NCBI GenBank assembly: GCA_030605085.1
Contig: JAUWBH010000078.1
Span: 1 to 25,274, forward strand
Source: Promethearchaeota archaeon
GTDB lineage: Archaea; Asgardarchaeota; Lokiarchaeia; Sigynarchaeales; SOKP01
DNA length: 25,274 nt
Reading direction: 5' to 3'
A program made the translations under genes and the position numbers. Shown piece by piece: positions 6,169 through 24,901 of the stretch. Numbering within the stretch: the stretch's first letter is position 1; every line of letters starts with the position of its first letter. The notes under the pieces are model-generated. The model did no database searches and was not told where the DNA came from. It saw nothing but the letters and a program-made list of their open reading frames with translations.

Positions 6169-7269
6169 TTAATTTTGTTTTAATCTTAGAGGAGGAACAA
6201 ATACTTTTCTAGGACCAGTTCTTTCTAAATTGATAGCTTCTTCTGGGCAATGATGTGCGCATACCCCACAGCCAATACATCTATCATTGTTTATAACTGC
6301 TAAAGTATCTACCAGCTCCGGTGCTTCGACAGGGCACATATTAACGCACGTTCCACAACCCACACAAATATCTTCATTCACTTTTGCGATATATGAAGTA
6401 AGAGATTTTATTGGTGATATTCCACGATAATAATTCTGGAATGTGCCACAGCAACATTTGCAGCAATTACAAATAGCAGCTTCAATCTTTCTTGGATCTA
6501 AATTGGCATGAATAGCTTTATGAACAAGCCCAGCATCTTCTGCTTCTCTTAAAATTTTCATTGCTTCCTCTTTTGAAACGGATTTAGCAAAACCATGTGC
6601 TATAGAAAAATTAGCGCTTTTTCCTAATTGTATGCAATTTAGTTTTGGTGCGTCAATTTTACAGTGTTCGTTCAAGAGATCTTTATGATGCCTACAATAA
6701 CAATTTGAAACGGCGATAACCTCAGAATTTTCGACTAATTTTTTTATTTCTTCATAAGGTAATACTGATTCTGGTTGAACTTCCACTTGTTCTTCCACTG
6801 GAACAACTCTATCCATATAAGGGAGTTTTTTGTATTGCTCAACGATATTATCGTAGTTCTTTTGGGTAAGTTCTGTCATTTCGTTAAATAATTTTTCGTA
6901 TATAACGGCTAATTTTTTTTCTTTATCTCCTGTTTCTCCTTTCATGAAACTATATTCAAATACGCCGGGGAGGAAGCTCATGAGCGTATATACCATAATT
7001 CCAGTCCGTCTGCTTGGATTACCAGCAATAATACCTTTTTTCATTAAGGCATCAAGCATCTTATCTAATGGTTCCTCGTCCACATCAGCTTTACTTTTAA
7101 TCTCATCAATATTCATATTTGGCTTTCTAAAAACCTTTTGAATAAAATTTCCTTCTTCCTCAGTTACCAAAATTTTAGTTAACTCAATGAGAGTATCATT
7201 AATCGGAAAAGGATACCCACCTGCTTTTTGAATAGTCCTTGCTACTTTATACCAAAATTTGTCATCCAT
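6169..7269 (-). CDS. Winged-helix / Cys-rich / 2[4Fe-4S] ferredoxin fusion, paralogue 3
   Basis: Last of three tandem paralogues. The N-terminal ~130 residues are helical and look like a winged helix. The middle has a CxCR motif (NCYCRHH), then a dense cluster CNCCKCCCG. The C-terminus has two classical [4Fe-4S] motifs, CVGCGTCVNMCP and CIGCGVCAHHCP. This is probably a cytosolic electron carrier or redox sensor. I place the start at ATG 7269 (366 residues) because the alignment with the 368-residue paralogue begins there. A TTG at 7323, three bases after the upstream stop, would add 18 residues but has no properly spaced ribosome binding site. Confidence 0.85.
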   Translation of the reverse strand: MDDKFWYKVARTIQKAGGYPFPINDTLIELTKILVTEEEGNFIQKVFRKPNMNIDEIKSKADVDEEPLDKMLDALMKKGIIAGNPSRRTGIMVYTLMSFLPGVFEYSFMKGETGDKEKKLAVIYEKLFNEMTELTQKNYDNIVEQYKKLPYMDRVVPVEEQVEVQPESVLPYEEIKKLVENSEVIAVSNCYCRHHKDLLNEHCKIDAPKLNCIQLGKSANFSIAHGFAKSVSKEEAMKILREAEDAGLVHKAIHANLDPRKIEAAICNCCKCCCGTFQNYYRGISPIKSLTSYIAKVNEDICVGCGTCVNMCPVEAPELVDTLAVINNDRCIGCGVCAHHCPEEAINLERTGPRKVFVPPLRLKQN

Positions 7270-7326
7270 GTTTTTACACTTCTCTATTAAATTTTTCTTT
7301 TTTGCATATTTGAGATTTCTCAACCT

Positions 7327-8478
7327 TTATTGAATTCTTCCTTCCATATACCTTTTGGCTGCCTCCATTGCATCTGCGGCAGGAACCTTAGTAAATTTTT
7401 TCACCATTGTTAAGGCTTCTTTCGGACAATTAAACGCGCAAACCCCACACCCTATACATCTATCATAGTTAACAACAATTCGCTTATCTTCTGATTCCTC
7501 TTCAACAAGTTCAATGGTATACATTGGACAAAGTTTAGTGCATTGTTTGCAAAATCCACAGTTTTCTTTTTCATACTCTGGGAGAAAATTTGAACTTGCA
7601 ACAACATACGGATTTTTAAATTGTCGAATACCTCGCAACATTATACAAGTGTCCCGGTCACAATTGCATATGAACATGGACTTATCGGTTATGTTTTGAG
7701 TTGTGTGAACCAAACCAGCTTTAGCTGCTGCTGAAAGAGTTTTGAGACCCTCTTCTTTTGATAATTCTCTACCAAATCCTTGCTCAATACAATACTCTGC
7801 TGTTGTATTGAGGGCCATACAAACATTAATCGGATATTCATTAACGGGTGTTCCATCATTATATATCTTCATATGAGTCCGGCAGGCACAATCCATCACA
7901 GAGATCTTACGTGATCTTTCTATGATTGTTTTGGCCTGTTCGAATGGGAGTATATCATTTTTTACTAGCTCAACCTCCTTTGCAACATCAACTAATTTTC
8001 CTTTTCCTCGATTTACTGTATCCTCCACAATTTTTTGATCTACAAAAACTCTCATAAATGGATAAGTAGATTTAAAAGTATTCGATATGTAACCTTTATC
8101 ATAATATTTCTCATATTCCTCAGCAAACAACATCATTTTTTCTTTTTCTTCAGCTGAAGCTCTCTCGTGATTTGAAAAATACATTTCAAACAAACCAGGA
8201 ATTAATGGAAACAATGAATAAGTCCTATTTCCATCCTTCTCTGCAGAGAATAATCGTTGAGTCCTTGCCATCTCCTTTAACATCGGCTCAATTTCTTCAA
8301 CAGGTCGCTTGATTTTTCTCGCTATTTTTTTTGCTGTGAACCGATCCATAAACGGACCGTTGAATACCAATAGTATATCTGCTTCTTCAGGAGTGAATAA
8401 AGCCTTTAGGATTTTTTCCATTTCTGGCGTCCAAACACTGCCCCTCTTTTTTGAAATTTTCTCGTATTTATCAACCAT
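7327..8478 (-). CDS. Winged-helix / Cys-rich / 2[4Fe-4S] ferredoxin fusion, paralogue 2
   Basis: 383 residues with the same architecture as its neighbours: helical winged-helix-like N-terminus, CACRTH in the middle, a CNCDRDTC element in place of the denser Cys cluster, and C-terminal ferredoxin motifs. The first ferredoxin motif is the variant CGFCKQCTKLCP, the second the standard CIGCGVCAFNCP. The central Cys cluster has only three Cys where the paralogues have six or more, so this copy may have lost or changed that metal site. A good ribosome binding site (AAGAGGTT) sits 8 bases before ATG 8478. The next gene follows almost without gap. Confidence 0.85.
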   Translation of the reverse strand: MVDKYEKISKKRGSVWTPEMEKILKALFTPEEADILLVFNGPFMDRFTAKKIARKIKRPVEEIEPMLKEMARTQRLFSAEKDGNRTYSLFPLIPGLFEMYFSNHERASAEEKEKMMLFAEEYEKYYDKGYISNTFKSTYPFMRVFVDQKIVEDTVNRGKGKLVDVAKEVELVKNDILPFEQAKTIIERSRKISVMDCACRTHMKIYNDGTPVNEYPINVCMALNTTAEYCIEQGFGRELSKEEGLKTLSAAAKAGLVHTTQNITDKSMFICNCDRDTCIMLRGIRQFKNPYVVASSNFLPEYEKENCGFCKQCTKLCPMYTIELVEEESEDKRIVVNYDRCIGCGVCAFNCPKEALTMVKKFTKVPAADAMEAAKRYMEGRIQ

Positions 8479-8530
8479 TTTTTTTAACCTCTTAACTAAA
8501 ATCTTTATTTTTTTATTTTTTTATTTTTAT

Positions 8531-9637
8531 TTAAGATTTTTCCATTCTAGCCAATTCTGCTTTTTTATCCATAATAGCCTTGTATGTCGCTGCTGTATTT
8601 AAGGGAGGAATAGTCTCTTCCTCCTTTTTCTTAAGAGATATCGCATCGTTAGGACATGTAGGAATACATACTCCACAGCCAATACAACGATCTCGATTAA
8701 CTGTAGATATATCATCAATGATAGATATTGCATCCATATTACAACGATCTTCACATGCACCACAGCCTACACAGACATCAGAGTCTACTTCGGCATAAAA
8801 GTTGGTGGCGAAGAAAGGAGCCGGAATTTCCAACCTTTTCTGATTGGTTAAAACTTCGCAGCAACATCCACAACATAGGCACATGCAGAAAGGACGTTGA
8901 GAATTTCCTGGTTGTAGAACTAGATCCGCTTCTTCTGCTTTTTCTAAGATTTCGAGGGCTTTTTCCTTGGATATTAATCGATTAAGGCCCTTTTCATGAA
9001 AAGTTAAGGCTGCTGTTCTGAACGAAAAACATATCTCGCGCATATCCGTTTTTTTACACGGTTCTCCAAGGAGATCCGTTACTTGTCGGCATACACATTC
9101 TTGAACTCCTATAGGTTCACCAATATTCTCGATCATACTTTTCAAATCATCATAAGTGGCGATGCTTTGTTCAGGAGTAATACTTTGCTCAATAGGAATT
9201 GTTCTTAATTGAGGGATTTTAGTTCTGTTAAATTCTTGTTGAAAGAACGCTTCCTCAAGATATTGCTCAAAGTCTAAAACAAATTCTTTAGTAAGACGAT
9301 TTAACTGGTATTCAAACATTCCTATTACTAAAGCTGCGGCAGCATAAAATTTCTCTTCTCCTCTTTTTCCATGATTAATTAGTCCTTTATGGTACATCTC
9401 ATCCAACTTATTTTCAAGTTCTTCAATTGTAATGCCGCTTTTTTTTACCCTACGATAAATTTTTTTTAAGGGGTCTGGCATAAAATTCAAACTCAATGCG
9501 AGCTTTGCTTCTTCTGGAGTGAAAAGATGTTTCAACACTTTCAATTCTACGCCCGATTCGGTGGCAGGGAATCCAATAGGCATACTATCGAGATGCTTTT
9601 GTAACTCTCGATAAACTTCCATACTTTCTTCAGACAT
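8531..9637 (-). CDS. Winged-helix / Cys-rich / 2[4Fe-4S] ferredoxin fusion, paralogue 1
   Basis: 368 residues, first of the three paralogues in transcription order. It has a helical N-terminus (LFTPEEAKLAL is shared with paralogue 2), a CVCRQ motif in the middle, and a Cys cluster CMCLCCGCCCE. The C-terminal motifs are CVGCGACEDRCN (Pro after the last Cys replaced by Asn) and CIGCGVCIPTCP. GGTGAT lies ~9 bases before the ATG, a credible ribosome binding site. It is separated by 57 bases from the regulator gene upstream, so all four genes may be one transcript. The Cys-rich middle suggests an extra Fe-S or multi-metal site between DNA-binding-like and electron-transfer domains. Confidence 0.85.
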   Translation of the reverse strand: MSEESMEVYRELQKHLDSMPIGFPATESGVELKVLKHLFTPEEAKLALSLNFMPDPLKKIYRRVKKSGITIEELENKLDEMYHKGLINHGKRGEEKFYAAAALVIGMFEYQLNRLTKEFVLDFEQYLEEAFFQQEFNRTKIPQLRTIPIEQSITPEQSIATYDDLKSMIENIGEPIGVQECVCRQVTDLLGEPCKKTDMREICFSFRTAALTFHEKGLNRLISKEKALEILEKAEEADLVLQPGNSQRPFCMCLCCGCCCEVLTNQKRLEIPAPFFATNFYAEVDSDVCVGCGACEDRCNMDAISIIDDISTVNRDRCIGCGVCIPTCPNDAISLKKKEEETIPPLNTAATYKAIMDKKAELARMEKS

Positions 9638-9694: not shown

Positions 9695-10468
9695 CTATAT
9701 TAAAATTGACAATTCTTCTTTTAATCCATGTAGAAATCTCAAGGCTTTTAGTCCGTTTAATGTAATTAAGTATTTTTTATCTTCTTGCTTAACATATTTT
9801 GCTTTGATGAGTTTCTCTATATGAAATAGCAAGTGTCCAGCTTTAATCCCAATTTCTACCTCTAATTGACTATAAAATTTCCCACCTTTACTTAGATTTT
9901 TTAAGATTTTCAATCTTACAACGTTGGAAAGAGGTTTTAACAAGTCATTTATTTCCTCTTCATTTTCAAATTCTAAAAAGGTTTTAGATGTTTGTTCCAA
10001 AACAATTAATTCTTCTGAGTATTTTATTGACAATTCATTTGAAGCATTTATTAAATCCTTTAGTAATATAAATATGTTAGCTGCGTTCTTTAAGCATTCG
10101 TTATTGGGACATAATTTTACGCCTGGATTTGTTTCTAACATTTTCATATATTGATTGATTTTTGCTAGAGCAGAGTTTGATCCTTTGTCCGCGTAAGTTC
10201 TTAAAACGCGAAAAATCAATTTCTCAATTAAAGTCGTACATTCATTTAAGACCTTACAATCTTGAGCTCTGTTATCTAAAAAAAATTGCAGATTTTCATC
10301 AGAACTTTTAGTTAAATGGAGTAAAGAGTTCTCTTGAATTTTCCATTTTTTTAATACTTCAAACTCATTTTTCATATTTAAAATGATATCTTGTAGGCCT
10401 GTAAACTTTTTATTTAGTTCATTCAATTGTTTATTAATATCCAACAGAATTTTCTCTGAATTTTCCAT
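9695..10468 (-). CDS. Winged-helix (ArsR-like) transcriptional regulator with coiled-coil N-terminus
   Basis: 257 residues from ATG 10468. A TTG at 10507 would add 13 hydrophobic residues and is less likely. The N-terminal half is coiled-coil and helical, with a CPNNEC motif in the middle. The last ~90 residues form an ArsR/MarR-like winged helix: LSNVVRLKILKNL (helix 1), FYSQLEVEIG (helix 2), GHLLFHIEKLIKAKYV (recognition helix), then the wing and a terminal helix. It probably controls its own operon with the three Fe-S proteins downstream, or the divergent crotonase gene. A TATA-like box TTTATAATTA lies ~25 nt upstream of the ATG. The stop is TAG. Confidence 0.8.
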   Translation of the reverse strand: MENSEKILLDINKQLNELNKKFTGLQDIILNMKNEFEVLKKWKIQENSLLHLTKSSDENLQFFLDNRAQDCKVLNECTTLIEKLIFRVLRTYADKGSNSALAKINQYMKMLETNPGVKLCPNNECLKNAANIFILLKDLINASNELSIKYSEELIVLEQTSKTFLEFENEEEINDLLKPLSNVVRLKILKNLSKGGKFYSQLEVEIGIKAGHLLFHIEKLIKAKYVKQEDKKYLITLNGLKALRFLHGLKEELSILI

Positions 10469-10661
10469 TTTATTTTTACTAAAGGTAATTATAAATGAAA
10501 TTAGCAAAATGGCACTTAAACTATATTAATTTATACTTTTATTTAAAGTTTATAGAAAAATATAGTGGAAGGGTAACTTTTATATAGTTTAAATTATAAG
10601 AGTATCATACTAAAATAAATAAAAGCAATTAATCTATACAAATCCAAAATAATAAAAAGAG

Positions 10662-11411
10662 TTGTTGAAATTGGCTGAAAATGATTATAAATTTATTGAA
10701 CTTAAGAAAAAAGGTAAGATTTGTATTCTTAGATTAAATCGTCCAGAAAAGAAAAATGCTATGAGTTTCGATATGCGTTCTGAGATTATTAAGGCTTTAA
10801 ATCACCTTAAGGAAGATAATAAGATTAAATGCGTAATACTCTATGGTGGTGAAGAAATATTCACTGCTGGGTTTGATAGAGACGAAGTTCAAGCAGTAAT
10901 CCAAGGGACAGGTGATATACAAAGATTTGTGGATTCGAATAACCTATTCCATCATACAATTCTGGAATTTCCAAAGTTAATGATTGCGGCTATAAATGGT
11001 TATGCTTTAGCCGGAGGTTTTGATCTTTCTGTACTTTGCCATCTCCGTATCGCTTCAAGAACAGCTATGTTTGGCCATCCTGAGATTGGATTTGGAGCGT
11101 GTCCTCTCTTCTTTCCGTATATGGCCCTTGTTGGAAGAGGCAAAGCGCTTGAGCTTACATTAAATACTACGACTCGAGATAAATTTATTACTGCAGAGGA
11201 AGCGTATCGCCTGAACATTGTTAATAAATTAGTAGAGCCTGGCGAAGTTTTAGACGAAGCAATTAAAATGGCAAAGCAAATACTCAAATCCCCTGCGTTA
11301 GCAATCACCCAATTACTTCAAGTAAATAACGTATATTTAGATCGTGTGAAAGCCTTTGATACTGAAATCGATACTATAATTAAAAGTACAAGTTTTTTTT
11401 CAGGAAAGTAA
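10662..11411 (+). CDS. Enoyl-CoA hydratase/isomerase (crotonase) family protein
   Basis: 249 residues, normal crotonase length. Oxyanion-hole segments are AMSFDMR...TAGFDRDE and AAINGYALAGGFDLS. The position of the first catalytic Glu of classical hydratases (rat Glu144) is Asp121 here; the second (Glu164) is kept as E141 in GHPEIGFG. Asp at the first position is typical of dienoyl-CoA isomerases, so isomerisation is at least as likely as hydration. TTG at 10662 is the only sensible start. A TATA-like TTTATATAG lies at 10578-10586. The gene is divergent from the winged-helix regulator and may be under its control. Expected pathway: fatty-acid or aromatic acyl-CoA turnover. Confidence 0.88.
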   Translation: MLKLAENDYKFIELKKKGKICILRLNRPEKKNAMSFDMRSEIIKALNHLKEDNKIKCVILYGGEEIFTAGFDRDEVQAVIQGTGDIQRFVDSNNLFHHTILEFPKLMIAAINGYALAGGFDLSVLCHLRIASRTAMFGHPEIGFGACPLFFPYMALVGRGKALELTLNTTTRDKFITAEEAYRLNIVNKLVEPGEVLDEAIKMAKQILKSPALAITQLLQVNNVYLDRVKAFDTEIDTIIKSTSFFSGK

Positions 11412-11472: not shown

Positions 11473-11589
11473 TTAATCGCTTTTTAAGAGTTTGCTTAAC
11501 ACACTTTCTACGCCACTGGGCATGAAAATTACTATTTTTTGGGACGGATCTTGTGAAATGTCACGAATGGTTTGAAGCGTTCTTAACTA
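11473..11589 (-). pseudogene. Stomatin C-terminus beyond an in-frame TAG
   Basis: TAG (11587-11589, minus strand) is followed in the same frame by LRTLQTIRDISQDPSQ, then KIVIFMPSGVESVLSKLL, ending at TAA 11473-11475. Archaeal stomatins have Gln at the TAG position (ALQLRTLQT), so one CAG to TAG change explains it. There are no frameshifts or other stops. It is either a fresh nonsense mutation or a read-through product. Confidence 0.8.
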
Positions 11590-12258
11590 AATCGCGCCGG
11601 GATATTCTGCTAAAAGTCGGGCAGCGTCACGTAGGTTCATGGCTGCCTCTACTTCTCCTTCTGCGCTAATAATCGCTGCGCGCTTTTCTCTTTCCGCCTC
11701 TGCTTGAGCGGCCATTGCTCTCTTCATTACATCAGGTAGTTCAATTTCTTGTATTTTAATACTTGTGATGTCGACTCCCCAATCGTTCGTATCGGTATCT
11801 ACGATTTTGCTAATGTCTTCTGCAATTCTTTCCCTCTCAGTTAAGATGTTGTCAAGTTCCATGCTACTCAACACACCTCTAAGCGCTGCTTGAGTGTATT
11901 GCCGAACAGCGAAATGGTAGTTTTCTATTTTTATAAGGGCGTCCTCGGGGCTTATTACCTTAAAATACACAACAGTATTCACGATAACGGGAATATTATT
12001 TTTTGTAATTACCTCTTGACGAGGGATGTCCGCCGTTACGATTCTTAAAGACATGACCCTTGATTTCTCGAATAGTGGTAACACATATGAGACGCCTGGA
12101 CCTACAGTTCTCTTATACCTTCCCAACCGAAAAACTACTAGCCGTTCGTATTCTAAAACAATTCTAATGCCGGTTAATAACCATATTAATATAATAATCC
12201 CAAAAATTACTATTAAAACATAGAGAGCAATTAAGATTCCTAACATTTGATATATCAC
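11587..12258 (-). CDS. SPFH/stomatin-family membrane protein, cut short by an in-frame TAG
   Basis: 223 residues to the stop. An N-terminal membrane helix (residues ~5-28) is followed by the SPFH/band-7 domain: LEYERLVVFRLGRY, PGVSYVLPLFEKS, TKNNIPVIVNTVVYFKV, YTQAALRGVLSSMELD, and the coiled-coil start MAAQAEAEREKRAAIISAEGE. Stomatins are oligomeric membrane scaffolds, often paired with a NfeD protease, which is not seen here. The frame continues past the TAG for another 37 codons of family-like sequence to TAA at 11473, giving a normal ~261-residue length. See the separate entry and finding. Confidence 0.9.
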   Translation of the reverse strand: MIYQMLGILIALYVLIVIFGIIILIWLLTGIRIVLEYERLVVFRLGRYKRTVGPGVSYVLPLFEKSRVMSLRIVTADIPRQEVITKNNIPVIVNTVVYFKVISPEDALIKIENYHFAVRQYTQAALRGVLSSMELDNILTERERIAEDISKIVDTDTNDWGVDITSIKIQEIELPDVMKRAMAAQAEAEREKRAAIISAEGEVEAAMNLRDAARLLAEYPGAI

Positions 12259-17436: not shown

Positions 17437-20400
17437 ATGAATTATTCAGATTTAAGGAGATTAATTGATCAAAAGACAATAAAACTAATAAAAAATGAGA
17501 ATTGGGATGAGATATTACACATATTACAGAGATGTCCTGAGCAGATCTATTTTTTTAGGTTAATTCTTGAGGAAAAAATTAAAGTTTCTAAAGAATTAAA
17601 TGAATTCCCCGTAGAAAAAATAATATATGAAAACAACTCTCAAGATGATCCCAAAGCTCCAATTGTGCATTACAAATTTACAAAAATATTTCACTTAATT
17701 TTTGAACTGTTAAATTTTAAAAGAGACTTTCTTAGTGAAGAATTTAAGTATGAATTGTGTGAGATATTGTATCCCAAAATTACAGAATTTTTAAATGATA
17801 AGAGAAGTAGAATATCTTCAATTGAAAAATTTATTAATAATTTATATGTTGGAATTCGTCATAACTATTATGACGATTTTATAAACCATTTGTTTTTGTT
17901 AGAATATCTGAATAAGGAAAGACCAGAAGATATTGTTGAACTTTTTCCGAAAATTGTCTCGAAAGGATTATATCGACTAGGGTATGAATTGATCATTAAA
18001 TTTAATGAATTAATAAAACAGTACGATTCAGAAACGAGACAAATATTAGAGAATATTATACTCTATGAAAAGCAGTATTATTCTCTAAGGGAATTATTGG
18101 AAGAAGAAAATAAAGAGCTTATAAAAATAATGGAGGATAACCGTAGAAAACTGAGAAAAGAATTCTATGAGAGATTTATAAATTATACAAGAGAAACACT
18201 AGATTTAGAATCCTTTGAGAGAAATCCAGAAGATACCTTTAGATATACATTTGATTTATATTCCAAAAGCGAACTTAAAGCAATTATAGAAAAAATCATA
18301 GAACTGAAAATTGACTATTCTCATTATGGAAATAGAACTGAACATCCTTGGGTGCATTTAATTTTACTTGATATAGCATGGGCAAAGGAAAGTCAATTAT
18401 TTGAGGGTTATTTAGAAGATTTGATAAGGCTTGGACATATACAAGCTGTTAGAATGTATTATGGGCAATTTCCTGATAAAATTAAAAAATCCCAAGATTT
18501 TATATTTGATAGATTAGGTTTCTTCGTTCTTGATTTGTTTAGATGGCATTATGAAGCTTTTGAATTTAAAGATCCCGAAAAAATATTTAGAAAACTATTA
18601 TTTAAGGATTTACCAGCTGATGCTCTAACACTCATATTTTTCAATAAACAACCAGAACTTATTAATCAATTAAAAAAGATCATTAAAGAATATATCAACG
18701 CTAAATTAAAAGAAGATGTAATTGGGAGAGGATTATTCTTCAAAATAGATGGACTTTTAAGGATTTATTATCGAGATTATCCTGAATATGATCATAAATC
18801 CGAGTCCAACATCAGTTTATTAGAAAGAGCGTATAAATATTTCGTTTCCAAATCCATTTTTAAAGAAGATATTTCCTTTATTTACAATTTTAAATTAGCT
18901 AAAGACTTCAATCAACTAGAAAAATCGTTGCAAGAAGATATTATAAATCAGTTAATTGGAACTAAAAATTTATCATCAATTGAATTTTTACTTACTTTTG
19001 GTTATAGACATTTGGAAAGTTATTTAGATTTAATAATAACTTTTAAACCTAAGCATGATTTACAATCTGAACATTTTATTAAAGTCTTAGAATCAATTCT
19101 AAGAAAGAGTGGCAAAAATAAAGAAATTCAAGATAAAGTTAAGAATCGACTTAAAGATCAAGTTTTAAGCCATAAAAAAGCAGAAGCTTATTCATTTTTA
19201 GGAGAATTTAAATTATCAGAGCAGGTTATAGAACAGATTCTAAGAGATGAGGTTATAATCCCTTATGCTATAAATTCTTTTATTGATTATCGATTAGTAC
19301 AAATAGAATCTAGAATTATCAATTCTTCTCAATTTGATATATCTGAGAGTATAGATGAGTTGACGGAGATTGAAATAGATTTTAAGCGCTTTAATTCAAA
19401 TCCAAACTTAATACAAAATTATAATTTTAAATTAAACAGTTATAAAGCTCGTCTTAATTTATATCAGGGTTTTCATTATTTATATGATAAATATTTCAAA
19501 ATAAGTCGAAATGCTTTCAAAGAAGCATTAAAACTCTATAAAAAGCTAGAAAAAGCAAAGCGAATAAAACCCGATACTAAAGAAATTTTTAATATCTTAA
19601 AGAAAGTATCAAACTTTTTTTTCATATATTATTCAAGAATCAAAATTTTATTAAAAAAAGATGATTTGGAAGAGCTAAACTCAATCATCAAGCGAAATTT
19701 AATCGAACCTTTACTTTTTATGAAAACAATTAATCCACAATTTCATAGATTTTTAGAAAATATAAAAAATTTACAATTTGATTTGGAATCAAGAACTATT
19801 AATCAACTGAAATGTGAAATTCCTACAAAATTTTGCCCTATTCCTCCAAGCATACAAAATAAACGTATATTAGATAAAAATAAGGAGAAAGTACTAATTG
19901 AATGGGATAAAGATAATAAAACAAAAAATCTTGAACCTATTCAAATATCAGATAGTTTTGAACAATATTACTTTGAAATGAATTTTGTTGAAAAAGACAA
20001 ATATTACGATTTCAACATAATGCCTAAAAATGAAGAAGATTTTCAAATTGAAATAAAAAAAGAAGAACCTCAACAAGCAGGAAAAATTTGTTTTAAATTT
20101 GAAATTTCTTTTCCTCAGATTGAAGGACTTAAGTATTTAAGATTAGATATAAGAGAGAATGATATTTGTGAATATAAAATTGAAATTCCAATACCATTTT
20201 TATTAAAATCACCATTTATTGGACAGTCAATGAATTTAACTGATGATTATATACGAGTTTTACATATATCTGATATCCAAGAAGGATATTTTGGAATAAA
20301 AGAAGATTTAAAAAAGGAAGATCCTGAGAATTGGCAAAATAAATATAATTTATTACTTAATGATTTAAAAAATCAATTTAAGAAGATTCATTCAGAAAGA

Positions 20401-21168
20401 CCAGTTGATATAATAGTAATCTCCGGAGACCTAGCAAGTAAAGGTATTGAAGATGATTATTCAAACTTAACAAGAGAATTCATTCCAATAATGGAAGAAG
20501 TATTCTTTTTGGGGAATAATCCTGTCCCTAAGAATAATTGGTTATTAGCTCCTGGAAATCATGATGTTCATAGGGGCAAAAATGATGATCGATTTAATGA
20601 ATATATTAGTTTTTGCCAACAAAATGGGTTTCATTTACGATTTGAATTAAATAATCCTTTTTCTATATTTGACCTAATCTCAGTTACAAATGAAAGTAAT
20701 AACATTAAAATTGAATTTCTTTTATGTAATAGTTGTCTAGATATTTATGATAAGGACACTGGAAATCAAGCAAAACTTTCTAAAGATTACTTTTACCATT
20801 TTGAAGATAATTTAGATCTGCATACATTAAAGATTTTGATATGTCATCACCGTCTTATTGAGATTTCCAGTAACAAAAGAGATCACTGCTTACAAGAACT
20901 ACGAGATAGGAATGTACTATTGGCTCTAGTTGGAGACTTTCATGAATCTACAAAATATGTTGATAAGATTAATGGAATAAAATTTATATCAACTGGAGCA
21001 TTGTTGGCAAAAAAATCTGAAAGAATGGCTGGAACCGATGTGATTAATCGCGAATTTAATGTATATGATATAAATTTAAAAGAAAGAAATATAATTTGGT
21101 CAACTTATATAAAATCAAACAGATGGGAAAAAATACAAAGAGATGAAGTTAATATCTTTACTGATTAA
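17437..21168 (+). CDS. Giant alpha-solenoid protein with C-terminal calcineurin-like phosphoesterase
   Basis: 1243 residues. Residues ~1-780 are continuous amphipathic helices resembling a TPR/HEAT-type solenoid; no P-loop is visible, so it does not look like a STAND ATPase. Residues ~785-935 are beta-rich, a likely Ig-like sandwich. Residues ~940-1225 are a metallophosphoesterase: D946 in HISDIQ, D998 in SGDLAS, G1040-N-H-D1043, H1137-H1138, and G1166-D-F-H1169. Two canonical metal ligands differ: His of D-x-H is Gln948, and the first His of GHxH is Asp1167. The large sensing-type scaffold plus nuclease or phosphodiesterase domain is typical of conflict proteins. It is followed by a partial duplicate of its enzyme domain and a PLD-like gene. 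Confidence 0.85.
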   Translation: MNYSDLRRLIDQKTIKLIKNENWDEILHILQRCPEQIYFFRLILEEKIKVSKELNEFPVEKIIYENNSQDDPKAPIVHYKFTKIFHLIFELLNFKRDFLSEEFKYELCEILYPKITEFLNDKRSRISSIEKFINNLYVGIRHNYYDDFINHLFLLEYLNKERPEDIVELFPKIVSKGLYRLGYELIIKFNELIKQYDSETRQILENIILYEKQYYSLRELLEEENKELIKIMEDNRRKLRKEFYERFINYTRETLDLESFERNPEDTFRYTFDLYSKSELKAIIEKIIELKIDYSHYGNRTEHPWVHLILLDIAWAKESQLFEGYLEDLIRLGHIQAVRMYYGQFPDKIKKSQDFIFDRLGFFVLDLFRWHYEAFEFKDPEKIFRKLLFKDLPADALTLIFFNKQPELINQLKKIIKEYINAKLKEDVIGRGLFFKIDGLLRIYYRDYPEYDHKSESNISLLERAYKYFVSKSIFKEDISFIYNFKLAKDFNQLEKSLQEDIINQLIGTKNLSSIEFLLTFGYRHLESYLDLIITFKPKHDLQSEHFIKVLESILRKSGKNKEIQDKVKNRLKDQVLSHKKAEAYSFLGEFKLSEQVIEQILRDEVIIPYAINSFIDYRLVQIESRIINSSQFDISESIDELTEIEIDFKRFNSNPNLIQNYNFKLNSYKARLNLYQGFHYLYDKYFKISRNAFKEALKLYKKLEKAKRIKPDTKEIFNILKKVSNFFFIYYSRIKILLKKDDLEELNSIIKRNLIEPLLFMKTINPQFHRFLENIKNLQFDLESRTINQLKCEIPTKFCPIPPSIQNKRILDKNKEKVLIEWDKDNKTKNLEPIQISDSFEQYYFEMNFVEKDKYYDFNIMPKNEEDFQIEIKKEEPQQAGKICFKFEISFPQIEGLKYLRLDIRENDICEYKIEIPIPFLLKSPFIGQSMNLTDDYIRVLHISDIQEGYFGIKEDLKKEDPENWQNKYNLLLNDLKNQFKKIHSERPVDIIVISGDLASKGIEDDYSNLTREFIPIMEEVFFLGNNPVPKNNWLLAPGNHDVHRGKNDDRFNEYISFCQQNGFHLRFELNNPFSIFDLISVTNESNNIKIEFLLCNSCLDIYDKDTGNQAKLSKDYFYHFEDNLDLHTLKILICHHRLIEISSNKRDHCLQELRDRNVLLALVGDFHESTKYVDKINGIKFISTGALLAKKSERMAGTDVINREFNVYDINLKERNIIWSTYIKSNRWEKIQRDEVNIFTD

Positions 21169-21432: not shown

Positions 21433-21831
21433 TTGCGGATTTTACATCTTTCTGATATTCAAGATGGTGAGCTTGGCATAAAGCCTGACTTAAAAGACAA
21501 GTTTCCCGATGATTGGGAAGAAAAATATAAAGATATTTTAGAAGACTTAAAAAGTGAATTCAATAGTATTCATTCAAAAACGCCTATAGATATAATTACC
21601 ATATCTGGAGATTTAGCGAGTACAGAATTTGAAGAAGAATATAAAAATTTATCAAAAGAATTCGTACCAATATTAGAAGAAATTTTTCTTAAAGGATCAA
21701 ATCCCGTCCCGAAAGATCGGTGGTTAATAATACCTGGAAATCATGATGTCCAATCGGATGAAGGTATAGAACGCTTTGACGAGTTTATTAAATTTTGTGA
21801 AGGGAACGGATTTAAATTGCCGTATGAATAA
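21433..21831 (+). pseudogene. Partial second copy of the phosphoesterase domain
   Basis: 132 residues from TTG 21433 to TAA 21831. Closely similar throughout to residues ~941-1072 of the giant protein: D8 in HLSDIQ, D60 in SGDLAS, GNHD at 102-105, and the same SNPVPKDRW linker. It stops at NGFKLPYE, before motifs IV and V, so the active site cannot be complete. Just past the stop, a shifted frame briefly resembles the expected continuation (NNTL for NNPF), suggesting a frameshift followed by decay. There is no solenoid part upstream. Most likely a duplication remnant; a separately expressed partial domain is less likely. Confidence 0.75.
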
Positions 21832-23062: not shown

Positions 23063-23080
23063 AAACCCTTAGTAATAATT

Positions 23081-23179
23081 TTGTCGATAGGAGACCTCTC
23101 TTCGCTCGAAGAACTAGATTTAAATGGTAATCAGTTAAAGACTCTCCCTGAGTCGATAGGCCTATATCAACCACACTGA
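23081..23179 (+). pseudogene. Fragment of a leucine-rich-repeat gene
   Basis: 32 codons read as about one and a half LRR units, SIGDLSSLEELDLNGNQLKT then LPESIG, ending at TGA 23177. The IGxLxxLxxLxLxxNxLxxLPESIG pattern is the standard LRR consensus common in Asgard genomes. There is no start and no further repeats, so it is a broken remnant. Confidence 0.75.
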
Positions 23180-23633: not shown

Positions 23634-23794
23634 AATATTTAACTTTAAAAAATATCTGGAAACAAGACGGTAAAAAATGTGTAATGATTTGCCACGATCA
23701 CATGTCAAACACGCAAGCATAGAGTGAACATCTTGGAATCGTTCACTTTTTTTGCGGCAAGTGTGGGTATGGTGGGCTACTCAACAAAATGTAA
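23610..23794 (+). pseudogene. Degraded Cys-pair gene fragment with an in-frame TAG
   Basis: One frame reads WKQDGKKCVMICHDHMSNTQA up to the TAG at 23720-23722, then SEHLGIVHFFCGKCGYGG to TAA 23792-23794. CVMIC and CGKC could be the two halves of a zinc ribbon. The DNA is richer in GC than its surroundings. No start codon context is present. I read it as a decayed gene piece. Confidence 0.4.
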
Positions 23795-24192
23795 TAATCT
23801 TTAAAAATAAAATTAATAGAATTAAAAAGAATTGGAATGATTATTGCCTGATCATTTAGGATTGATTGAGGGATATTTAATTTTTGTTTAACGATTTTCC
23901 AGATTAAAATATAAAACTCATTTTTCATTCCTGACATAAATAGAAAATTAGAATATAATAATTTTAAATCACCTAACTTTATGTTTTTTACAGAATCCGG
24001 CTCAAATCTTCCATGTTCCAAATAATTCACGTAAGTTTTATATATCTCTATAAAGCATGGGTAAATTCTTGTGTTTATTAATTTGTTTAAGGCATTTTTG
24101 TTTTGGATAAGGCTGATATAAGTGTGCTTAGCCGTTTTATCCCCATAATAAGCAAGTTCACAAAGAATAGGAAAAGCAAATTTAAAATCTAA
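23743..24192 (-). pseudogene. Fragment of an LRR-associated C-terminal module joined to the hydrolase
   Basis: A minus-strand frame is open from ~24192 to TGA 23743. Its first part reads DYLDFKFAFPILCELAYY, then GDKTAKHTY, which resembles a motif (FPLLxxLxxxGDxxAKxxF) I associate with the tail of Asgard LRR proteins. The start codon is missing, and the upstream end abuts the stop of the alpha/beta hydrolase in a different frame. The later part (after ~23960) is hydrophobic and less convincing. Probably a recombined gene tail. Confidence 0.45.
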
Positions 24193-24901
24193 GTAATCTT
24201 GAGTTTGGAATTTTTTCGTGTAAGAATTTAGAATCTTTTACAAGTATAAGTTTATCATTAGCTCCTGCCATGATTAATGTCGGTTGCTTAATTTTATGTA
24301 ATGAATTGCGCGTATCGTGAGCTGATATAGCGGCTGCTTGATTAATATAGTCTTGAATTCGAGTTGTCTTTTCTGTTACTAATTTCTTTTTTAAAAGATC
24401 TAATAATTTTTCGTCCTTTTCTAAATCTTTTATAAATGACTCTGAAAACAATAAATCAAGCCTTTTTTTAAATGCTTCTTCTATATCCAATTTCTCTATA
24501 AGTTTTTCTTCTTCAATTATTGAATTAGGGTTCATATGCACTGAAGTTGACAATAGAATCAGTGTTTTAACCATATCTGGATATTTTAAAGCAAAATTTT
24601 GAGCAATCATTCCTCCCATACTAACTCCTATTAGATGGATCTTATCCTTAATATTCAAATATTCAAGCAGGGCTTTAGTTTCATCAACAAATGTGTCCAT
24701 CGTGTAAGGATAATTTGGTCTTGAACTTTTTCCAACACCTAGATTATCTAACGCAATAACCATCATTCTTCGTTTGAAAAATGGTATTTGCAATATCCAA
24801 CTTTCAAGGGAGGCTCCAAGCCCTTGGAGCATTACGAGAGGTTCGCCTCTACCTCGTTTTATATAATTTATTTCAATATCATTAAATTTGAAGATGGGCA
24901 T
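24182..24901 (-). CDS. Alpha/beta hydrolase lacking its C-terminus (likely pseudogene)
   Basis: 239 residues. The oxyanion and lid start (LVMLQGLGASLESW), nucleophile elbow G92-V-S94-M-G-G97 and acid strand MAGANDKLI (D216) are intact, so two of three triad residues are present. The protein ends at IPNSRLLRF, about 25-35 residues before family members end, exactly where the GxHxxF strand with the catalytic His should follow. The downstream DNA belongs to an unrelated fragment, so the gene was cut by recombination. Intact relatives are esterases, haloperoxidase-like or C-C hydrolases. The start ATG 24901 is well placed at the family N-terminus. Confidence 0.85.
   Translation of the reverse strand: MPIFKFNDIEINYIKRGRGEPLVMLQGLGASLESWILQIPFFKRRMMVIALDNLGVGKSSRPNYPYTMDTFVDETKALLEYLNIKDKIHLIGVSMGGMIAQNFALKYPDMVKTLILLSTSVHMNPNSIIEEEKLIEKLDIEEAFKKRLDLLFSESFIKDLEKDEKLLDLLKKKLVTEKTTRIQDYINQAAAISAHDTRNSLHKIKQPTLIMAGANDKLILVKDSKFLHEKIPNSRLLRF

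What the first reader, a model, noticed from the sequence alone, without database searches (positions are those of the whole stretch)
11473..11589. In-frame TAG at a conserved Gln of a stomatin gene, with an intact C-terminus behind it
The sequence shows TAG followed without any frameshift by 37 codons that match the stomatin C-terminal pattern (LRTLQTIRDIS...). The family has Gln at this exact position, so CAG to TAG is a single transition. The downstream frame shows no decay, implying a very recent mutation, an assembly error, or real decoding of UAG (suppressor tRNA or pyrrolysine).
Basis: partly seen in the sequence, partly recalled or inferred. Interest (0 to 1): 0.72.

Follow-up and report, generated by a model that had tools for sequence, protein, structure and literature searches.

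The report
Stop codon truncating an archaeal stomatin
A stomatin (membrane-scaffold) gene of an uncultured Asgard-type archaeon carries a premature UAG stop 38 codons before its normal end; the best reading is a young, ordinary nonsense mutation, because two nearby genes use the same codon as a true stop.

Summary
A stomatin (SPFH/Band 7) gene on the minus strand, 12258-11473, is interrupted by TAG at 11589-11587, followed in frame by 37 codons that match the stomatin C-terminus and a TAA 2-4 residues past where most aligned homologues end. The aligned residue is Gln in 105, His in 12 and Thr in 2 of 119 listed homologues; the 18 grouped with it are mixed (8 His, 10 Gln). The tail keeps 16 of 16 strongly conserved residues, so the stop is young or the tail is still made.

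Best reading: a recent nonsense mutation that removes the cap helix and barrel strand that, in human stomatin, close the ring. UAG read as an amino acid has no positive support: two other genes in the window end in TAG at, or within a few residues of, their homologues' ends; no tRNA and no unusual RNA fold were found. It is not excluded: the genome is not held, so pyl genes and a CUA tRNA could not be sought, and lone tRNA-Pyl is reported in Loki- and Thorarchaeia (PMC9723677). Sequence or strain-mixture error is not excluded either.

The parts
11590..12258 (-). Stomatin gene before the stop: membrane segment, SPFH/Band 7 domain and wall-helix region, 223 codons from GTG 12258 (219 from ATG 12246)
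   Evidence: Frame; Pfam PF01145 1.2e-39; homologues
11587..11589 (-). In-frame TAG, at a column that is Q in 105, H in 12 and T in 2 of 119 listed homologues
11473..11586 (-). 37 in-frame codons of the stomatin C-terminus (cap helix and barrel strand by alignment to human stomatin) and the TAA at 11475-11473
   Evidence: domain names from passages of PMC12344292
4941..6050 (-). Gfo/Idh/MocA-type oxidoreductase gene that ends in TAG: internal control showing TAG as a true terminator
   Evidence: searches (stop; Pfam): of 17 aligned homologues 8 end at the same column, 8 within one residue, 1 six residues further
9695..10507 (-). Winged-helix (ArsR-like) gene that ends in TAG: second internal control
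   Evidence: searches (stop; Pfam, sub-threshold): of 13 aligned homologues 10 end at the same column (one of them, P0241, the same species), 3 end 1-3 residues earlier

Best explanation
This is a real, evolutionarily young nonsense mutation in a stomatin gene of an Asgard-type archaeon. UAG is read as stop here, as at the ends of two other genes in the window. Translation would give a 219- or 223-residue protein that keeps the membrane segment and the SPFH domain but lacks the cap helix and the beta-strand which, by analogy with human stomatin, close the narrow end of the oligomeric ring. The product is probably inactive or impaired, and the gene is either being lost in this lineage or is a strain polymorphism. 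Shown: the stop, the intact frame behind it, and TAG used as a terminator nearby. Inferred: that the mutation is real, that it stops translation, and its effect on the ring.
For: TAG ends two other genes at or near the ends of their homologues. No tRNA gene, no Rfam family at gathering score and no unusual fold around the stop (z -1.0, 31 of 200 shuffles fold as well). A neutral simulation shows that an intact tail is expected if the stop is young: probability 0.44 at 2% divergence, 0.14 at 5%, 0.04 at 8%. The other 119 listed homologues are 243-262 residues long, so the short form is unusual. Truncated gene pieces with TAA stops lie elsewhere in the window. Section 5 of PMC7918605 reports that in-frame stops in bacterial genes tend to persist only for short times.
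Against: The tail keeps 16 of 16 strongly conserved residues, which continued translation would explain as well. PMC7918605 (abstract) argues from dN/dS below 1 that many in-frame stops in bacteria are not pseudogenes and suggests readthrough. Orphan tRNA-Pyl genes are reported in Loki- and Thorarchaeia (PMC9723677). No sister allele with a sense codon was seen; the next homologue is 76% identical.
Confidence: 0.72

Rival explanations
1. Sequencing, assembly or strain-mixture error: the main allele in the population has a sense codon, and the consensus base is wrong or comes from a minority strain.
For: A single base separates the site from a sense codon, the tail is undecayed, and the record is a lone contig of 25,274 bases of unknown coverage.
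Against: No intact copy of this species' stomatin is among the 120 best hits; the next homologue is 76% identical. The window's short form stands for a cluster of two member sequences, but the second member could not be seen, so this is only a hint.
Confidence: 0.15
2. UAG is decoded as an amino acid here, by pyrrolysyl-tRNA or another CUA tRNA in competition with the release factor, so that full-length stomatin is made.
For: Intact tail with 16 of 16 conserved residues kept and a proper end. Pyl recoding is reported for Sifarchaeia, which still end 21% of genes with UAG, and tRNA-Pyl without pyl genes for Loki- and Thorarchaeia; true TAG ends nearby do not exclude ambiguous decoding.
Against: Two genes in the window use TAG as a true end. 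In Sifarchaeia the only in-frame UAG reported is in mtbB. No tRNA in the window; no PYLIS-like fold, though that element is not required (PMC9499178 passage). No chemical reason for Pyl at a site that is Q, H or T elsewhere.
Confidence: 0.09
3. A functional short form: the truncated stomatin is a maintained variant that works without the cap and barrel.
For: The body still keeps 108 of 119 strongly conserved positions.
Against: A tail long out of use would not stay intact.
Confidence: 0.04

Closest known systems
Archaeal and human stomatins (PH stomatin 3bk6; human stomatin 9wmj and others)
   Same: Same family over the whole length, tail included: profile matches to 3bk6 (1.5e-58) and 9wmj (1.7e-63).
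   Different: An in-frame TAG at the column of about Gln249 of human stomatin (my count from the alignment and residue numbers in PMC12344292).
In-frame stops in bacterial genes (PMC7918605)
   Same: One in-frame stop with an undecayed frame behind it; the paper's worked example is also TAG (8 TAG and 10 CAG sequences in Paenibacillus).
   Different: [quoted passage not shown] this is one archaeal contig.
Pyrrolysine recoding in Sifarchaeia (PMC9723677)
   Same: In-frame UAG in an Asgard-type archaeon that also uses UAG as a stop.
   Different: The gene is not a methylamine methyltransferase, the host class is not known, and no pyl gene or CUA tRNA was seen (genome not held).

Membership tests
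Stomatin (SPFH/Band 7) | Band 7/SPFH domain after an N-terminal membrane segment | tested here: met
   PF01145 1.2e-39, residues 33-202; hydrophobic N-terminus aligned with homologues
Stomatin (SPFH/Band 7) | C-terminal cap helix and barrel strand in the translated product | tested here: inconclusive
   Encoded in frame but behind a TAG; whether it is translated is unknown
Nonsense-disrupted gene | In-frame stop well before the ends of the homologues | tested here: met
   219/223 against 243-262 residues in the other 119 listed homologues
Nonsense-disrupted gene | Intact allele in close relatives of the same species | not testable with these tools
   No other allele could be read; next homologue 76% identical
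Pyrrolysine-containing protein | pylS, pylB, pylC, pylD and tRNA-Pyl in the genome | not testable with these tools
   No genome held for the window; the window alone has no tRNA
Pyrrolysine-containing protein | Methylamine methyltransferase or known Pyl-protein family | tested here: not met
   The protein is a stomatin
Global UAG reassignment | UAG no longer used as a terminator | tested here: not met
   2 of the 19 other ORFs counted end in TAG, both at or within a few residues of their homologues' ends

The most novel reading that the evidence does not exclude
A lone CUA tRNA (a remnant tRNA-Pyl such as those reported without pyl genes in Loki- and Thorarchaeia, or a natural suppressor) reads this UAG and keeps a stomatin gene working, which would give such orphan tRNAs of Asgard archaea a physiological target.
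Probability: 0.07. Interest if true: 0.8.

Novelty: new member of a known kind. Interest (0 to 1): 0.2.

Why it matters
As an ordinary nonsense allele it matters little: one more young gene disruption in an uncultured archaeon. If UAG were decoded here, it would give a function to the orphan tRNA-Pyl genes reported in Loki- and Thorarchaeia and show amber suppression outside methylamine metabolism. The source genome and its reads would settle which.

Tried and rejected
Global recoding of UAG: rejected, because two other genes end in TAG at or near their natural ends. A PYLIS-like element: the 96 bases around the stop fold about 1 SD better than shuffles. A chance open frame: rejected by homology, not by openness, which has probability about 0.05. 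Fast evolution of the body as proof of decay: dropped, since a long branch is also expected of an unsampled lineage. Structure prediction of the read-through protein gave a useless model (mean pLDDT 43.7, pTM 0.18) and is not used. DNA relatives: the genome-contig scan returned one locus, a bacterial stomatin (L001, 30% identity); viral contigs returned two distant ones (L002 41%, L003 46%); an exact-pattern scan of viral contigs found none. A literature search with 'pyrrolysine', 'Pyl code' and 'TAG' from 2023 on found 0 papers; I made no claim of novelty in print.

ORF count: one search listed 21 ORFs of 100 aa or more; I dropped the antisense one at 11000-11308 and counted stop codons on the other 20 (17 TAA, 3 TAG, the stomatin's included).

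Full report
What is there. The minus strand carries a stomatin frame from GTG 12258 (or ATG 12246) to TAG 11589-11587, 223 codons; then 37 sense codons to 11476 and TAA at 11475-11473. Pfam recognises Band 7 (PF01145, 1.2e-39). The protein search returned 7833 matches among 7998 scored candidates; the best 120 were listed: the window's own 219-residue form and 119 others of 243-262 residues, whose organism names, where given, are Lokiarchaeota, Thorarchaeota or Promethearchaeota. The host is therefore taken as an Asgard-type archaeon, class not determined. The same search gives 25,274 bases as the contig of the window's own protein, so the window is probably a whole contig; no genome is held.

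The site. In an alignment of the read-through frame with the 119 other listed homologues, the TAG column holds Q in 105, H in 12 and T in 2. In a tree of the part before the stop, the smallest group that holds the window's protein has 18 others (support 0.876), of which 8 have H and 10 have Q. Descent from a Gln codon by one transition is plausible, but no sister sequence shows it.

State of the tail. At columns where at least 95% of homologues agree, the tail keeps 16 of 16 and the body (from residue 29) keeps 108 of 119. Eleven body departures rank third among the 120 sequences; 110 of the 120 have no tail departure at all, so an intact tail is the norm and not special to this copy. In a simple neutral simulation of the tail (transition bias, no indels), the chance of keeping all 16 residues with no new stop is 0.44 at 2% divergence, 0.14 at 5%, 0.04 at 8% and 0.015 at 10%. 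So either the stop is younger than roughly 8% neutral divergence or the tail is still translated; the sequence alone cannot separate the two. The window's protein has the longest terminal branch in the body tree (0.289, next 0.183). That may mean relaxed constraint, but the nearest relative of the oxidoreductase is also only 75% identical, and that of the winged-helix protein outside the species 60%, so an unsampled lineage explains it too.

Is UAG a stop here? Of the 20 ORFs counted, 17 end in TAA and 3 in TAG, the stomatin included. The oxidoreductase (6050-4941) ends in TAG right after IINFD, exactly where homologue P0130 ends with the same residues; of the 17 homologues aligned 8 end at that column, 8 within one residue and P0123 six further on. 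The winged-helix gene (10507-9695) ends in TAG at the column where 10 of 13 aligned homologues end (one of the 10, P0241, is the same species), the other 3 ending 1-3 residues earlier. Global reassignment of UAG is therefore very unlikely. ARAGORN found no tRNA and Rfam no family at gathering score in the window, and the RNA around the stop is not unusually structured (z -1.0).

What the literature allows. PMC9723677 (abstract and passages, section 12) reports Pyl recoding among Asgards only in Sifarchaeia, with 21% of genes ending in UAG and mtbB as the only in-frame UAG gene; it also reports tRNA-Pyl without the pyl cluster in Lokiarchaeia and Thorarchaeia, role unknown. PMC9499178 (passages) repeats this. 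So the pyrrolysine/suppressor idea is not absurd for this host, and true TAG terminators nearby do not rule out ambiguous decoding. Nothing here supports it positively. PMC7918605 (abstract, section 5) finds in-frame stops widespread in bacterial genes. It cuts both ways: it says they tend to persist for short times, which fits a young mutation, but also reads their dN/dS below 1 as a sign that many are not pseudogenes and may be read through.

Effect if UAG stops translation. By the profile alignment and the residue numbers in PMC12344292 (passages), the TAG column corresponds to about Gln249 of human stomatin (my count back from K263). [quoted passage not shown] The short protein would keep the membrane segment and SPFH domain but not that closure. 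Impaired function is inferred, not tested; an AlphaFold model was too poor to use.

Allele evidence. Apart from the window's own protein, no listed homologue is above 76% identity. A second strain of the same species is in the database: P0241, on a 3,071-base contig, has one Val/Ile difference from the window's winged-helix protein. The window's short stomatin heads a cluster of two member sequences; the second could not be seen and may be that strain's copy, truncated or cut by a contig end. This is a lead, not evidence.

Setting. The right end of the contig holds what look like gene pieces: a 132-codon metallophosphoesterase piece 55% identical to residues 939-1070 of the gene next door, and an alpha/beta-hydrolase frame that stops at TAA about 20 positions before the end of its Hydrolase_4 match. 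These end in TAA, so they are no candidates for UAG decoding; they suggest that broken genes are not rare here.

Verdict. A confirmed observation; most likely an ordinary, recent nonsense mutation in a stomatin gene (0.72), with error (0.15), UAG decoding (0.09) and a functional short form (0.04) as rivals.

Noticed in passing
21433-21831 (+) and 17437-21168 (+): A 132-codon metallophosphoesterase piece, 55% identical to residues 939-1070 of the 1243-residue protein upstream; it covers only profile positions 1-83 of 191 and ends in TAA. Looks like a remnant of a duplicated gene.
   Followed up: partly
24182-24901 (-) and 23743-24237 (-): An alpha/beta-hydrolase frame stops at TAA near but before its profile end, and a different 164-codon open frame overlaps its end. 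The second frame was not searched; a rearrangement is my reading by eye.
   Followed up: partly
23063-23179 (+): A short open stretch (38 codons) that reads by eye like one leucine-rich repeat; not searched against any library.
   Followed up: no
6169-9637 (-): Three tandem genes for related 4Fe-4S proteins (Pfam); the first and third are 30% identical over 354 columns, the middle one was not compared.
   Followed up: partly
273-306 and 698-721: A short tandem repeat (AAAGTTGGAC units) with an inverted copy about 400 bases on (24 bases, 92% complementary), in a stretch (1-1000) without an ORF of 100 aa.
   Followed up: no
11587-12258 (-): The stomatin ORF has the highest G+C of the 20 ORFs counted (0.40; the others 0.26-0.38).
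   Followed up: no
9695-10507 (-): Protein P0241, on a separate 3,071-base contig (source label 'lgn'), differs from the window's winged-helix protein at one residue: a second strain of the species is in public data.
   Followed up: partly
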